Part shown: piece after piece, positions 2,133 through 8,025 of the stretch
Layout of the letters: every line of letters starts with the position of its first letter
Numbering within the stretch: the stretch's first letter is position 1
DNA from: Cellvibrio mixtus subsp. mixtus J3-8
GTDB taxonomy: Bacteria; Pseudomonadota; Gammaproteobacteria; Pseudomonadales; Cellvibrionaceae
Assembly (NCBI RefSeq): GCF_000766945.1
Contig: NZ_ALBT01000032.1
Span: 1-64,000 of the forward strand
Length of the DNA stretch: 64,000 nucleotides
Reading direction: 5' to 3'
Position numbers and translations under genes: made by a program
Notes under the pieces: generated by a model
What the model saw: the letters and a program-made list of their open reading frames with translations, nothing else
Databases searched by the model: none
What the model was told of the DNA's origin: nothing

Positions 2133-2487
2133 TGGTGGAGCCGGGGGGATTTGAACCCCCGTCCGCCAGCACTCCATCCTCGGCTCTACATGTTTAGATC
2201 CGTTTATTGATTTAACGCTGTATCAGCCCAACAGGCAGGACGATAAGCGCGATCCTGTAGAGTTTTAGCAGCGCCGCCCCAGGCATGCTTTGCTGCGATC
2301 CAGTTCTGTATGACGGGCTCTAGCGCGGTACTGGCACCTTGTCAGAGACCGTTAGCTGCATTAAGCAGCTAAAGCGTAAGAATCGTCGTTTGCGACTATT
2401 CAAGTACAGCTTTGGATTAACGTGATTGGCTGTCATCACGACATGCACCTTGGACTTTGTTACCGGCGTCGAATCCAAATCGGCCCC
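2133..2487 (-). ncRNA. ssrA: tmRNA (transfer-messenger RNA)
   Basis: The minus-strand RNA begins GGGGCCGATTTGGATTCGACG at 2487 and ends CCGGCTCCACCA at 2133, with CCA encoded. GGGGCCG pairs with CGGCTCC to form the acceptor stem, and the T-arm (GGGGGTTCAAATCCCCC) is intact. Its 355 nt are close to the E. coli length (363). The tag reading frame runs from 2393 down to 2361: resume codon GCA, then AAC GAC GAT TCT TAC GCT TTA GCT GCT TAA, giving ANDDSYALAA. tmRNA with SmpB rescues stalled ribosomes and tags the unfinished protein for proteolysis; smpB is not adjacent. The 3' end, a very common integration site for prophages and islands, points at the phage genes to the left. Confidence 0.97.
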
Positions 2488-2844: not shown

Positions 2845-4395
2845 TTACCATGCAGGGGTTCGGTATTGCCAGGTAAAAACATCGAATTGGTTATGCAGTA
2901 TTGGATCGTGAATGATATTGCCCTTTAAAAAACTACCGTACAGTTCTGGCGGTGATTGTAAATATTGATTGGTTGATTGCGCATTAATAAGGCTGGATAA
3001 CACCACTGGGGATGCTAATGATGGCGAGCTGATCAGTGGGAAAACGTCAAACTCAAAAAATCCGTAGAGAATAGTTTTCATTGCCTGACGCCGGGTGCCT
3101 GGTAATCCGGTGAAGGGATCGCTTTCCTGTGTTTGGCCGAGTGGAATAAAAATATCCACACATGCTTTCGCGTCCAATTGCTGCTTGCCCAAAATGCTGG
3201 TGTCTGAACTTCCATCTTTCGGAATATCAGCTCCTGCATACATAAAATCCATTACCCGAATGCGGTTACTTATTGATGAATCGCAATCTGCCGGGTAATC
3301 GGGATCATTTTCTGTGAGTTCCCGTTTGCTATAAGTGGCAGCTTGCACTAATGCAACTTCCTGCATCTGGTTGATAGATTCGTTGTGATAAGTGTGTGAG
3401 GCTAAGGATTTTATAAATTGATGATCGATTGCCAGGATTTGCGTTAGCACCTCCTCGGACGCTTGGGCATCGCAGGTGTTTTTTATAATTGCAGATAGCA
3501 CTGGCCGCGATAATCCCCAGGATGCATTAATAAAACCAACATTATATTGCTCAATGGTGTTTTTTAATGAAGCTAAAAAATTTTCATACCGGGATCTTAT
3601 GATGTTAATGGCAAGCGTGGATTCAGTAGCATCCACAGATGTTAATTGTGAACAAGTTTCAGCGGGAGCATAGAGTTTGGATTCTGATCCCGATTCAACA
3701 AATACAAACTTTGCCGTGGGGTTATGTTCCAGCAGAAATGTAGCGATGTAATAGCCGTGGCCTTCTCCCGGGGGCGTCATCGTGAATAGCTGGATATTTT
3801 TAGGTGTATTAAATGCAGAGAAATCCTGTACTGATAAATAACCATCATAATTTTTTATGAGAGTAAAAACATTATTCACGGTAACGGGCATTGTTGTTTT
3901 TGGGCGGTATTGCACCAGATTCATGTTTGTATCCGTTGTTAGCAATTCAAGTACGCGGCTCCTGTAAGCGGCAACCGCCAGGGAAGCCATATGGTTATCG
4001 ATGATCAATACAGTGGGATATTTTGTATTTCCCGGTTTGGGGGCGGGGGCTTCGAATTCAACCTCGATTTTTTCGCAGCTGTAGGGTTTGGTATCGGTAC
4101 AGGTTTCATTATTTAACAAATCTGCAATATCACTTAACAGTTTTGCCTTTGCCATTGGTGCTGTTGATGAAGTGTTTTGGCTTGATGTGCTCTGGCTGGA
4201 AAAAATAGATGAATTTGATGTTTCGGTAGAAAAACTACTCGATGAACTCGTCGCGACGCTACTCGGTAGTGAAGCAATATTTGAGGATGGTAATCTGCTT
4301 GAGGGTGACGAATTGGTGCTGCCGGAATCACCGCCGCAACCGGCTAATGTAATGAGTGTCAGCCCGGCAGCCAGATGCGTTAACGACTTAAACAT
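2845..4395 (-). CDS. Lipoprotein with serine-rich linker and subtilisin-like (S8 fold) domain, catalytic Ser replaced
   Basis: The 516-residue product starts with a lipoprotein signal (lipobox LAGC, Cys20), then a Ser/Thr-rich linker to about residue 80. The rest looks like a diverged peptidase S8 domain. VLIIDNH around Asp133 sits in the Asp-motif position. GEGHGYYIATFL around His213 matches the His helix. NASWG at 290-294 resembles the oxyanion-hole Asn motif. VALVQAATY resembles the following core strand. ACVDIFIPLG followed by GTRRQA (433-438) occupies the place of the APG...GTSMA signature, with Arg435 where the nucleophilic Ser should be. If this reading is right the protein is a pseudopeptidase, perhaps a binding or scaffold partner. 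It is the last gene of the four-gene run 7202-2845, 107 bases after its neighbour. The fold call is by eye; the lipoprotein call is firm. Confidence 0.7.
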   Translation of the reverse strand: MFKSLTHLAAGLTLITLAGCGGDSGSTNSSPSSRLPSSNIASLPSSVATSSSSSFSTETSNSSIFSSQSTSSQNTSSTAPMAKAKLLSDIADLLNNETCTDTKPYSCEKIEVEFEAPAPKPGNTKYPTVLIIDNHMASLAVAAYRSRVLELLTTDTNMNLVQYRPKTTMPVTVNNVFTLIKNYDGYLSVQDFSAFNTPKNIQLFTMTPPGEGHGYYIATFLLEHNPTAKFVFVESGSESKLYAPAETCSQLTSVDATESTLAINIIRSRYENFLASLKNTIEQYNVGFINASWGLSRPVLSAIIKNTCDAQASEEVLTQILAIDHQFIKSLASHTYHNESINQMQEVALVQAATYSKRELTENDPDYPADCDSSISNRIRVMDFMYAGADIPKDGSSDTSILGKQQLDAKACVDIFIPLGQTQESDPFTGLPGTRRQAMKTILYGFFEFDVFPLISSPSLASPVVLSSLINAQSTNQYLQSPPELYGSFLKGNIIHDPILHNQFDVFTWQYRTPAW

Positions 4396-4502
4396 GTATG
4401 GATTCCTTGTTGGTTTGCTGCCGGGGATAATCCTGCATCACTGGTGTTTCGTCAAATGCACAGGGCGCCAACACGTTGCAGAATGTTGTTCTGTGTCGCA
4501 TT

Positions 4503-5288
4503 TTAATTATGTTGCTCACGCAATTGCTTTAACTTTTCACTGATAGTCAAATAATTCTCTTTGCTGAGTTCCCGGGATAATGACAATTCCAGGCCGATTC
4601 TAAACGGATCGTACAATCTCGTTGATGCGCCTGCCTGCCGGGCAATTGCGTCAAAATTCGCAGCAATATAGTTGTCGCCGTCATTACCCATTTTGGCTCC
4701 GATGTAGCTTGTCACTAAATCTGAATAATCATGTTCTACCCCCTTTACCCATTCGCTGGATTTTAACCGCACCGCTGTTTGTGATAATGCATATTCAAGT
4801 GGTTCATAATTTCCTTGTTTGGCGAGATAGTTCAGCATTTTTATAGATGCTACCCGGGCCTGGGCTTGTTCATCACCAAAATATTGTTGCGAGCTTTCAT
4901 AATTGCCGACAGTATTTTTAATAAGATCTACAATTTCAGGGTCACGCGAGAGTTGTTCGTAGATTTCGTTTCGCTTGTTTTCCCTATCCACATTGTTGCC
5001 GAGTAAGAAAATTTGCCGGTATTCTTTTTTAAATGTCTCTATGGATTTATGGCTGAATACAGGGGCTGTTTCGGTTGTTGGCTGTTGAGCCTGGTCGGCC
5101 ACGGCTTTCGTTGGTGCTGCGGGAATAGCTTCTTTAACCATTGTTTTTTCTGCAATGACGGGCGAGGTCGGGCTTTTCGTTCCAGCCTGATTGGCCGGTG
5201 AAATACTTTCCTGTGACGTCAAATAAAATACACCCGCAATTGCGATTATGGTCACGCTGCTTGCTATTAAAAATGCTCTGGTTTTCAT
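4503..5288 (-). CDS. Membrane-anchored protein of unknown function
   Basis: I do not recognise this 261-residue protein. It has one N-terminal membrane span (about residues 4-24) with a lysine/arginine before it, then a Pro/Ala/Thr-rich stretch to about residue 75, then a predicted helical, charged domain of about 180 residues with no Cys. It therefore probably sits in the inner membrane with the domain in the periplasm. I chose the ATG at 5288 because AGGA lies 9 bases upstream. The ATG at 5297 has AGGA directly touching it, and longer versions would overlap the preceding gene. It lies 76 bases after the Hint-domain gene on the same strand, so co-expression is likely. Confidence 0.7.
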   Translation of the reverse strand: MKTRAFLIASSVTIIAIAGVFYLTSQESISPANQAGTKSPTSPVIAEKTMVKEAIPAAPTKAVADQAQQPTTETAPVFSHKSIETFKKEYRQIFLLGNNVDRENKRNEIYEQLSRDPEIVDLIKNTVGNYESSQQYFGDEQAQARVASIKMLNYLAKQGNYEPLEYALSQTAVRLKSSEWVKGVEHDYSDLVTSYIGAKMGNDGDNYIAANFDAIARQAGASTRLYDPFRIGLELSLSRELSKENYLTISEKLKQLREQHN

Positions 5289-5364
5289 TGTGTTCATTCC
5301 TGTGATTTTCGTTAAGGAGAGGCGACTAATCGCCGCCTCTCTTTTCGTTTTTACTAGCCGGTTA

Positions 5365-6192
5365 TTACTGGCGAATTCTGAATTCAGCGATTTCAGATTC
5401 CAAAATGTTTTGCCAGTACAGGTCACCCACGACTAAACCTTCTGCAACAATCAGATGGCCATTTTCTGTTGTTGAATTGGTCAGGAAATTGAACACGGTT
5501 TTATCTTTTTCACCCGTAGCTATGTCGACGATAGGGTCCGCAGTACCATTTTCCAATACCAGCAAATCGCCAGTGTTAAGGGTTTTTGCTTTCACGATAG
5601 TCCCATTCGACAATAGCACTCCGTGTTCAGTAGAGAGGCCTATATGTTTTCCTGATTCTGTTGTGATCAACACCAGTGGTTTTTCTTCCGGACCAAAAGT
5701 AACTTTCTTAATATCGCGGCTTTCAAAAACCAATGCGCTTAATGTTGAGTTATCGGTCGCTGCGGCTGCTGAGAATGCCAATGGGTTCTTAACGATATTT
5801 TCGATATTTGCGATCCGGCTTGCGCCAGTGTTTTTATCGAATACGCTAACTTCTGTTCCCTCGGCAAAACAACCGCAAGTACAGACGGCAATCAGCGGAT
5901 AGTTGCCTGCTGCATCAGGAAATTGGCTACAGATAGGTGCAATGGAATTTGCTCCTGCGTATAAATATTCGTTGTAAGTTATGCAACCTGGAACAGTCGC
6001 GCCGGTAATGGGGGAGGTGTAACCGTAATAGGCAATTTGGCGATATTGGGCACATTGGGCCTGGGTGAGTGTGGATGCGGCACAACGGCTGGCGAGTGTT
6101 GCGTCTTTCAAACGGCCCGGATCTGTTTGGGCAACCGCAAAATTGGTGACAAGCGCTAATAGTACACTTAAAACAAAGGTTGAAATTTTCAT
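5365..6192 (-). CDS. Secreted protein with C-terminal Hint (hedgehog/intein-like) domain
   Basis: A signal peptide (residues 1-21, ...NFAVA|Q) is followed by a cysteine-containing segment (Cys37, 47, 70, 88, 104, 106) and then a Hint-type domain starting at Cys108 in CTCGCFAEGTEV. LITTESGKHIGLSTEHGVLL (Hint block B, with S187-T-E-H190) and TLNTGDLLV follow, then VFNFLT and NGHLIVAEGLVVGD at the end. Hint domains cleave the bond before their first Cys by an N-S acyl shift. The C-terminal His-Asn needed for splicing is absent (GD there), as in Hedgehog, so cleavage or ester transfer rather than splicing would be expected. What the released 86-residue mature N-part does is unknown. It lies 38 bases after a secreted metallopeptidase gene. 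The Hint assignment is strong by motif but was not tested by search. Confidence 0.8.
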   Translation of the reverse strand: MKISTFVLSVLLALVTNFAVAQTDPGRLKDATLASRCAASTLTQAQCAQYRQIAYYGYTSPITGATVPGCITYNEYLYAGANSIAPICSQFPDAAGNYPLIAVCTCGCFAEGTEVSVFDKNTGASRIANIENIVKNPLAFSAAAATDNSTLSALVFESRDIKKVTFGPEEKPLVLITTESGKHIGLSTEHGVLLSNGTIVKAKTLNTGDLLVLENGTADPIVDIATGEKDKTVFNFLTNSTTENGHLIVAEGLVVGDLYWQNILESEIAEFRIRQ

Positions 6193-6230
6193 GTTCAGTT
6201 CCTTAACATTTGATTAATTGATGTAGATAT

Positions 6231-7202
6231 TTATTGAACGTTTGTGGTGCCGTCAGTTAGCTGGGGCTTATACCAACATCTGGGGCGAGGCGCGTTGTTG
6301 ATAACACCGCTACGTAAAATTTTTGTTACGCTTTCACAAGAATAAAATGCAGCGGCTTGTTCAGCGTATAAAGAATTTCTGCCGAGCGGGGCATCAACGC
6401 CGGGAATGGTGTAAATATCGAATGCGACATTACATAATCCACCATTTACGTAAGTGTCGAGACGGCATTGGGCACCGGGGTGGCCTTCGATAGTTTGTGT
6501 CACCCGATTATTATCTTTAGTCGCAAAACTCACAGTAGTTCTGTTGCCTGCGGCTAACAAATCTGCCAGTGATTTTCCGGCTAATGCAACGCGGTAACAT
6601 AATTCCCGGTCGAGTTGATCCGGCCAGTTTGCATCACATGCATTTTTTGGAATGGTCGGAATTCTGGTTGCATACGCTGAATTGTCAGCATTGCGCCACA
6701 ATTCACTGGCGCAGGATTGCGATGCAAAGTAATCCGATTGTCCCTCTGATGCCGCCCATGAGTTGCCACCGGAATAAAACGGAAAACCTGCCAGGTGATG
6801 TCCCATTTCATGGCAAGCCACTAAGGCAAATCCATCTTCGGTAACTTCCGGGGCGCGTGCGAGTCCGCCGAACATTTCCACATACCAGTTGTTGCCAACC
6901 TGGTATGCCTGAGCGTTAACGGTTTCATTATTCCATGATCTGATGAACGTTAAATTTGCGCCATGCGAGCGAACTACCGGATCATAAATCGCTATTACCT
7001 GATCAATGATTTGGTTGAATCGCGCCTGGGTTAAGCTCCCTGCATTGGCATTGGTTCGGCGATGCAGATTGTTATCTGGCATCACTTCTTCAAACGTTCC
7101 TGCAGCAATTGCTTGCTGTTTAATATCATCATTCTGATCAGCAGCATACAAAGATGTACTTGCTGCCGCTAAAGAACCGCATAGCATATATTTCCACTTC
7201 AT
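6231..7202 (-). CDS. Secreted HExxH zinc metallopeptidase, unassigned family
   Basis: The 323-residue protein has a signal peptide (cut near ...TSLYA|A, residue 21). The zinc motif is HEMGH at 131-135. Downstream, ASEGQSDYFA offers Glu153 as the likely third ligand, an arrangement like gluzincins (HExxH with Glu about 18-25 residues later). Seven or more Cys residues suggest disulfides in the periplasm or outside. The first ATG at 7202 has an upstream AGGAG at good distance and is followed directly by the signal peptide. It is the first gene of the run of four exported-protein genes and would be read from the AT-rich region above 7202. I cannot place it in a named MEROPS family. It might process the Hint-domain neighbour, but that is inference only. 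Confidence 0.8.
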   Translation of the reverse strand: MKWKYMLCGSLAAASTSLYAADQNDDIKQQAIAAGTFEEVMPDNNLHRRTNANAGSLTQARFNQIIDQVIAIYDPVVRSHGANLTFIRSWNNETVNAQAYQVGNNWYVEMFGGLARAPEVTEDGFALVACHEMGHHLAGFPFYSGGNSWAASEGQSDYFASQSCASELWRNADNSAYATRIPTIPKNACDANWPDQLDRELCYRVALAGKSLADLLAAGNRTTVSFATKDNNRVTQTIEGHPGAQCRLDTYVNGGLCNVAFDIYTIPGVDAPLGRNSLYAEQAAAFYSCESVTKILRSGVINNAPRPRCWYKPQLTDGTTNVQ

Positions 7203-8025
7203 AGATTTCTCCTGGTTAATTTAAAGGGTACAACAATCATTAAATATTTATGGAAATCATAAATACCTAACGAATCTGGATTTGAAATTCGCGAAAATTA
7301 TTGCGCTGCGCGCCGCTAACGTCGGATGGGATAATTCAATGGATGAAGGTGCGCGAGGTGGCGCTGTGATGGCGATGAGGTGATAAGTAGCTTCATTTTT
7401 TTATCCTTAATAATTTCCCTTACTTTTTAAAAATATTTTATTGCGGAGAATGTTTCTATCTTTTCAAATAAAATTTACAAAAATTAATAATTTGGAATTG
7501 TTTGGAATAACGTTCTTTATTTACATGAAAAAATAGGCGTACTTTTGGCGGATGGTTATTTTTTTTGTAATTGATTTTTTTATGTTTTATTCTGTGTGAA
7601 TTTTTCAGGGTGATGATTTTTTTAAAATGATTATGATTTTTATGATGCATAAGGCGACTTAAGCGAAAATGTAAATAACTTTAAATGCCAATGTAAACAT
7701 CGGATTTATTGTGCTGACTAATTTTTAAAAATGTATTGACAGTAAATTGAGTCGCGACAGTAAACATTTTTTAATTTTGTTAGCTTTTTTTTGGGGGGGT
7801 ATGAAGTGATTGGCAGGTGTGGGTACGGCATTGTTGTCCTGATTTATTTGCCTTTAATGGTCAATGGTTTTTATAGGAAGGATTTTTATTCCGGCGAATG
7901 GAATGCGATGAAAGTAAAAATGCGGTGTGGTGGGTAAATAAAAAATCCCACTTTCAGGGTGGGATTTCCAGATATGGTATTTTCGTAGTAATTGATGCGA
8001 CTTGCTTTAGGCAGTGCCCCGGGCT
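7203..8025. other. AT-rich intergenic region, probable control region of the metallopeptidase/Hint operon
   Basis: More than 700 bases carry no credible gene; open frames such as 7650-7456 are Lys/Asn-rich artefacts of AT content. Four copies of a GTAAA-containing motif, two as ATGTAAAYA and two as GACAGTAAAY, start near 7666, 7689, 7738 and 7756. TTGACA is at 7736-7741 without a clear -10. The composition differs visibly from the flanking genes. Confidence 0.5.
7940..7967 (-). terminator. Terminator of the GH43 gene
   Basis: A perfect 9-bp stem (7943-7951 with 7959-7967, AAATCCCAC/GTGGGATTT) reads on the minus strand into TTTTTTAT. It lies about 60 bases after the stop of the glycosidase gene. 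Confidence 0.85.

What the first reader, a model, noticed from the sequence alone, without database searches (positions are those of the whole stretch)
2845..7202. Four-gene exported module: metallopeptidase, Hint-domain protein, membrane protein, subtilisin-like pseudopeptidase
Seen: four consecutive minus-strand genes with gaps of 38 to 107 bases, each with an export signal or membrane anchor. The first has HEMGH and Glu153, the second a Hint domain after a Cys-rich secreted part, the third a single span, the fourth a lipobox and a degenerate S8 domain. Known: Hint domains self-cleave. Inference: the genes form one envelope or secreted system in which a self-processing protein and one active plus one inactive protease cooperate, e.g. 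precursor maturation, surface attachment or interbacterial antagonism. I know of no described system with this composition.
Basis: partly seen in the sequence, partly recalled or inferred. Interest (0 to 1): 0.75.

Follow-up and report, generated by a model that had tools for sequence, protein, structure and literature searches.

The report
Exported self-cleaving protein with two peptidases
A rare bacterial operon exports a protein that probably cuts itself together with a zinc peptidase, a membrane protein and a subtilisin-like lipoprotein; relatives of the first two are fused into one protein in other bacteria, so they very likely work together, but what they process is unknown.

Summary
Four minus-strand genes (2845-7202) encode A, an M48-like zinc peptidase; B, a secreted Cys-rich plus Hint protein; C, a single-span protein; D, a lipoprotein with a divergent S8-like domain. 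All four lie in the same order in two other genomes; the family survey found the full set in 2 of 144, the window's own and one other. So the Hint-peptidase pairing recurs. All 12 Hint proteins of this group carry C-x-C-[GS]-C, its last Cys the expected nucleophile; none of seven other Hint proteins does. D keeps Asp133-His213-Ser459 in 5 of 5 aligned sequences but seems to lack the oxyanion Asn, so 'inactive' is unproven. Best explanation: B self-cleaves at Gly107-Cys108, releasing an 86-residue Cys-rich fragment, with A as partner peptidase. Cleavage, redox gating, substrate and role are inferred. The searches made found no description of the pairing. New variant of a known kind; interest 0.6.

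The parts
6231..7202 (-). A: exported M48-like zinc metallopeptidase, 323 aa, HEMGH (131-135), Glu153, Asp157
   Evidence: H131, E132, H135, E153, D157 and eight Cys invariant in 41 of 41 aligned members; hhalign to M48 75%, E 2.5e-5; related domain fused to Hint elsewhere
5365..6192 (-). B: secreted Cys-rich N-terminal part (about residues 22-107), Hint domain from Cys108, conserved C-terminal tail (258-275)
   Evidence: Pfam Intein_splicing E 5.6e-5, below cut-off; alignment of three orthologues; hhalign to the Hint half of the fusions 98.3%, E 1.1e-14
5866..5883 (-). C-x-C-G-C-F motif, residues 104-109, with predicted self-cleavage site Gly107|Cys108
   Evidence: Cys at -4, -2 and 1 in 12 of 12 group members (not all independent); both upstream Cys in 0 of 7 other Hint proteins
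4503..5288 (-). C: N-terminal membrane anchor plus a soluble part of unknown fold, 261 aa, no known family
   Evidence: orthologues at 34% and 27% identity in the same place in the two other operons; no Pfam match over cut-off
2845..4395 (-). D: lipoprotein (Cys20) with Ser-rich linker and divergent S8-like domain, Asp133/His213/Ser459
   Evidence: triad invariant in 5 of 5 aligned sequences; hhalign to 29 S8 proteins, best segment 62.8%, score 43.6, reached by 1 of 200 shuffles

Best explanation
This is an exported processing operon. B crosses the inner membrane, and its Hint domain performs an N-to-S acyl shift at Cys108 and cleaves after Gly107, releasing a disulfide-rich fragment of about 86 residues from the Hint-plus-tail part. 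The zinc peptidase A is its dedicated partner, acting on the released fragment, on the Hint remnant or on a shared target. C anchors or organises the set at the inner membrane; D, an S8-like lipoprotein, adds a second, possibly weak, peptidase or a binding unit. The two Cys just upstream of Cys108 either pair with it and lock the reaction under oxidising conditions, or sit in disulfides of the N-terminal part. Shown by sequence: gene content, export signals (by eye), active-site residues, conserved order and the fusion of A-like and B-like parts. Inferred: self-cleavage, redox control, where the products go and what they do.
For: Same four genes in the same order in three genomes. A-like and B-like parts fused in nine proteins; against a profile of five of them A matches the C-terminal half (98.2%, E 5.8e-14) and B the N-terminal half (98.3%, E 1.1e-14), C and D none. 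One fusion passes Pfam M48's cut-off (24.3 vs 20.3 bits), another Hint_2's (30.2 vs 28.4). Zinc ligands invariant in 41 of 41 aligned A proteins. Cys1 and C-x-C-[GS]-C in 12 of 12. Precedent: a disulfide between an upstream Cys and Cys1 blocks the first splicing step in the P. abyssi MoaA intein (PMC3922620, PMC10663303; passages read). B-type BIL domains, which lack the C-terminal intein motif, cleave at their N-terminal side (PMC7765530, passage read).
Against: No cleavage data. The C-terminal His-Asn of inteins is replaced by Gly-Asp. AlphaFold models were poor (pLDDT 35.0 for D; 44.8 for B); Foldseek with B gave no match at E<=0.001, and many F1-ATPase hits follow the four intein/BIL hits, so neither fold is confirmed by structure. 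The known redox trap uses Cys at -3, not -2 or -4. Six upstream Cys could form three disulfides and leave Cys108 free. Six of nine fusions have lost HExxH, so the fused form does not always need peptidase activity. A occurs without recognisable B, C or D in 39 of 40 loci (several contigs are short).
Confidence: 0.5

Rival explanations
1. Antagonism system: the Cys-rich fragment or peptidase A is a secreted effector against other cells, and Hint cleavage frees it at the right moment. C or D would protect the producer.
For: Two fused relatives lie between a 'neuraminidase-like domain' gene (TcA-like, recalled) and a SpvB/TcaC gene by annotation; similar neighbours seen by eye in unannotated records; one lies in a baseplate-J plus AHH-domain cluster. 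Hint domains occur before toxin modules in polymorphic toxins (recalled; search listing only). Patchy distribution.
Against: No toxin, immunity or delivery gene seen when reading the ORFs beside the window operon; the four proteins match no defence-system model. No variable C-terminal module: B ends in a tail with 13 of 18 residues invariant in three genomes.
Confidence: 0.2
2. Surface attachment or cross-linking: the Hint thioester is attacked by an amine or hydroxyl on an envelope component, fixing the Cys-rich domain there, as Hedgehog is fixed to cholesterol. The 18-residue tail recruits the acceptor.
For: Hog-like layout (secreted N-terminal part, Hint, C-terminal extension). The tail is highly conserved (13 of 18 residues invariant) and is modelled as a helix, at low confidence. 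The Hog mechanism is described in PMC7765530 (passage read).
Against: The tail is far shorter than the sterol-recognition region of Hog proteins (recalled). No acceptor identified.
Confidence: 0.12
3. D and C are neighbours only; the functional unit is the A-B pair.
For: D homologues stand alone in G057 and, more remotely, G050. The fusion profile matches only A and B.
Against: C and D follow A-B in all three operons found.
Confidence: 0.15

Closest known systems
Bacterial intein-like (BIL) domains, B type, and the further type described in Bdellovibrio (Dori-Bachash 2009; title seen only in reference lists)
   Same: N-terminal Cys nucleophile, block-B [ST]xxH, no C-terminal His-Asn
   Different: Short two-part secreted protein with a C-x-C-G-C entry motif and a fixed conserved tail, in an operon with a zinc peptidase
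Hedgehog/Hog proteins
   Same: Secreted N-terminal part, Hint, C-terminal extension
   Different: No sequence relation of the N-terminal part shown; tail only 18 residues; bacterial
Peptidase family M48
   Same: HExxH and an upstream Asn-Ala-x-Ala motif in register; a downstream ExxxD with Glu153 and Asp157, by reading (the hhalign segment ends at HExxH)
   Different: The window protein is below Pfam's cut-off (12.6 vs 20.3 bits); eight invariant Cys; exported; no curated family covers it in the libraries searched
Peptidase family S8 (subtilisins)
   Same: Asp, His and Ser motifs and the INxSxG segment in order
   Different: No Pfam match, oxyanion-hole Asn seemingly absent, long inserts
Hint-M48-like fusion proteins (annotated 'M48 family metalloprotease', 'Ig-like domain-containing' or hypothetical) on Streptomyces, Paenibacillus, Mycetohabitans and Burkholderia replicons
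   Same: Homologous Hint and peptidase parts, with a Cys-rich start
   Different: One polypeptide with Hint before peptidase; no evident signal peptide (by eye); peptidase site lost in 6 of 9; other gene neighbourhoods

Membership tests
BIL / Hint (B-type-like) | Cys nucleophile at the start of the Hint domain | tested here: met
   Cys108 invariant in three orthologues and Cys1 present in all 12 group members
BIL / Hint (B-type-like) | Block B [ST]xxH | tested here: met
   S187-T-E-H190 in the window, T-E-T-H in L042; the His is lost in two distant fusions, L083 and L086
BIL / Hint (B-type-like) | Horseshoe Hint fold | tested here: inconclusive
   Model pLDDT 44.8; the four best Foldseek hits are inteins or BILs at E 0.026-0.11, none at E<=0.001, and F1-ATPases follow
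BIL / Hint (B-type-like) | Autocatalytic cleavage | not testable with these tools
   needs protein
Intein (splicing) | C-terminal His-Asn plus downstream nucleophile | tested here: not met
   Gly256-Asp257-Leu258 in the window
Peptidase M48 | HExxH with Glu third ligand in ExxxD | tested here: met
   invariant in 41 of 41 aligned members; that ExxxD marks M48 is recalled
Peptidase M48 | Passes Pfam PF01435 cut-off | tested here: not met
   12.6 vs 20.3 bits; a Streptomyces fusion passes
Peptidase S8 | Asp-His-Ser triad in order | tested here: met
   5 of 5 aligned sequences; hhalign register, His segment 62.8%, Ser 3.7%, Asp 0.6%
Peptidase S8 | Oxyanion-hole Asn | tested here: inconclusive
   Thr, Ala, Ile, Ala, Phe at the likely place in the five sequences, judged by eye against the recalled S8 motif; hhalign did not align this segment
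Peptidase S8 | Pfam PF00082 match | tested here: not met
   no Pfam family at E<=5 in 5 of 5
Tc or contractile-injection accessory | Tc, Rhs or baseplate genes next to the locus | tested here: not met
   none seen on reading the ORFs of window 1-12.5 kb (most not put to a profile library); present at some fused relatives

The most novel reading that the evidence does not exclude
An undescribed two-part machine, a C-x-C-[GS]-C-gated self-cleaving Hint domain plus an M48-like zinc peptidase, exists both as a split exported operon and as one fused polypeptide in toxin-complex and contractile-injection loci of several phyla. Reduction after arrival in a target compartment triggers self-cleavage and release.
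Probability: 0.25. Interest if true: 0.82.

Novelty: new variant of a known kind. Interest (0 to 1): 0.6.

Why it matters
Bacterial Hint domains are known mainly as parts of toxins or as BILs without a known partner (recalled). A recurring genetic and physical link to one peptidase family gives a testable partner, and the Cys motif suggests a built-in switch. It also points to an exported zinc peptidase family that no Pfam or NCBIfam model covers over its cut-off in the searches made, found mostly in Bdellovibrionota and Elusimicrobia records (34 of 40 loci by title), and to a very divergent S8-like family.

Tried and rejected
AlphaFold with two-row alignments gave poor models of D (pLDDT 35.0) and B (44.8); D was not sent to fold search, B was. 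PDB sequence search with B alone found nothing; with the D and A profiles only hits that I take as chance. Viral contigs: 62 pattern matches to B, none confirmed; phage records: no match to A. Defence library: no match for the four proteins. B also has a weak phage 'head protein' match (phrog_15127, E 0.0044), not followed. Class-wide samples gave only the window's own B and D (1 of 369 each). The genome scan with A used two short peptide seeds, so members without them are missed; 82 stretches matched, 40 were confirmed. Of 31 of 144 genomes matching D I kept G000, G131, G057 and G050; the others matched mostly its Ser-rich N-terminal third at E 4e-6 or weaker and were judged linker matches by span, not checked one by one. 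G013 (A, E 0.005) and G077 (C, E 0.008) were dropped as weak. Of 12 of 398 genomes matching the fusion profile: own; two full fusions; one Ig-like part only; one peptidase-like part only; seven Hint only. The first S8 comparison, with three S8 proteins, gave only 10.4%. In the 200-shuffle control one shuffle scored 137.2, above the real 43.6; not explored. The Ser and Asp segments of D (scores 27.6 and 21.1) were not compared with shuffles. The 12-of-12 motif count used a regular expression containing the motif to find Cys1; alignments A11 and A12 show these Cys for 8 of the 12. The 12 are not independent: L085 holds two near-identical copies, and L087 and L088 are close. A more distant Bdellovibrio Hint (L084) has only the -4 Cys. 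The seven control Hint proteins are those the fusion profile found, not a random draw, and their Cys1 was placed by eye.
Full report
The observation. A and B begin with what look like ordinary signal peptides, C with an uncleaved anchor and D with a lipobox (LAGC); these are read from sequence, no predictor was run. Pfam and NCBIfam give nothing over cut-off for any of the four: B has Intein_splicing at E 5.6e-5 and intein_Nterm at E 0.031 starting on Cys108, A has weak M6 and M48 matches, C has nothing, D nothing informative.

Conservation. Within the family, 2 of 144 genomes carry B: the window's own and G131; the 20 same-genus genomes listed lack it. The same two carry A (plus one weak match), C (plus one weak match) and D; D also occurs alone in G057 and, more remotely, G050. 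In G131 the order is A-B-C-D on one strand. A scan of the genome collection with two peptide seeds from A gave 40 confirmed loci. One, an uncultured Saccharospirillaceae record (L042), again has A-B-C-D in order. In the other 39 (26 titled as Bdellovibrio-like or Oligoflexia groups, 8 Elusimicrobia, 5 only 'bacterium') no B, C or D was found at E<=0.01, though several contigs are short. The four-gene set is therefore rare and patchy but coherent: three genomes, identities to the window of 53 and 52% (A), 50 and 44% (B), 34 and 27% (C), 35 and 28% (D).

The A-B link. tblastn with B against plasmid records found proteins in Paenibacillus, Mycetohabitans and Bdellovibrio. The first has a Cys-rich start, a Hint domain over Pfam's Hint_2 cut-off and then a domain related to A (hmmsearch E 1.1e-6). 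Searching with it found relatives in Streptomyces and Burkholderia; A alone hits one Streptomyces protein directly at E 8e-6. Two more fusions came from a sample of 398 genomes of the window's phylum, which the tool does not name. That makes nine in all (L082, L083, two in L085, L086, L087, L088, L092, L093). The two near-identical Streptomyces copies in L085 and L093 keep HExxH; six of nine have lost it. Against a profile of five of the nine, A matches the C-terminal half (98.2%, E 5.8e-14) and B the N-terminal half (98.3%, E 1.1e-14), while C and D give no match. By annotation two fusions lie between a neuraminidase-like-domain gene and a SpvB/TcaC gene and one in a baseplate-J cluster; L082 and L087 have similar neighbours by eye. 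I only note that context; calling it Tc-like is partly recalled.

Active sites. A: H131, E132, H135, E153 and D157 are invariant in 41 of 41 aligned members, with eight invariant Cys. hhalign to 26 M48 proteins of the genus gives 75% (E 2.5e-5) with HExxH in register, against 0.1-0.4% for three unrelated alignments. B: six Cys precede Cys108 and none follow; Cys at -4 and -2 is present in 12 of 12 group members and, together, in 0 of 7 other Hint proteins, with the limits told under Tried and rejected. The intein His-Asn is Gly256-Asp257 here. An Asp at that place is kept in 11 of 12, and Asp is among the C-terminal residues found in class 1 inteins (PMC7664689, passage read). Of the last 18 residues 13 are invariant in the three orthologues. 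D: three separate hhalign segments place His213 (with INASWG; 62.8%), Ser459 (3.7%) and Asp133 (0.6%) on the corresponding S8 motifs in the right order. The best score, 43.6, was reached by 1 of 200 column shuffles (mean 13.6), and four unrelated alignments scored 15.6-17.4. The oxyanion Asn seems absent by eye, so activity is uncertain either way.

Mechanism. I propose N-terminal self-cleavage by B at Gly107-Cys108, as for B-type BIL domains (PMC7765530, passage read). Disulfide control by the upstream Cys pair is possible by analogy with the MoaA intein redox trap (PMC3922620 and PMC10663303, passages read), though the spacing differs and an even number of upstream Cys would also allow a free Cys108. 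A is the partner peptidase. The roles of C and D are inferred from location only.

Literature. Searches for Hint domain with M48, toxin complex or contractile injection found no paper; with metallopeptidase and bacterial, one paper on fungi by its title (listing only); in the broader, 15 of 2,749 papers were listed and none of these titles concerns the pairing. This covers only the open-licence library held here. The Bdellovibrio BIL paper is known to me by title from reference lists.

Verdict. Real, conserved and worth testing; its parts are known kinds and the combination is undescribed as far as I could search.

Noticed in passing
window 2133-2487 and 40-1243: A tmRNA gene (Rfam 200.2 bits) lies just beyond D; on its other side are a phage portal fragment and a D12 DNA adenine methyltransferase, suggesting a prophage remnant at ssrA.
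   Followed up: partly
window 7203-8025: AT-rich stretch (GC 0.349 in 7001-8000) upstream of the operon with a Lys/Asn-rich 64-aa frame, probably non-coding.
   Followed up: no
L059, L056, L081: Tandem copies (4, 2 and 2) of the A-type peptidase in records titled as Bdellovibrio-like groups.
   Followed up: no
L082:6854-7387 and L087:6621-7244: A small Cys-rich protein with CxxCGC follows the Hint-peptidase fusion in both; no Pfam family over cut-off. Genes of similar size follow it in L083, L086 and L088, not compared.
   Followed up: partly
L084:3688-6423: Plasmid-borne Bdellovibrio lipoprotein (lipobox by eye) with PKD and thrombospondin-1 domains and a C-terminal Hint domain of this type.
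   Followed up: partly
L034:6380-8170 and L035:6337-7740: Stand-alone homologues of the S8-like lipoprotein D; no A, B or C was found in these genomes.
   Followed up: partly
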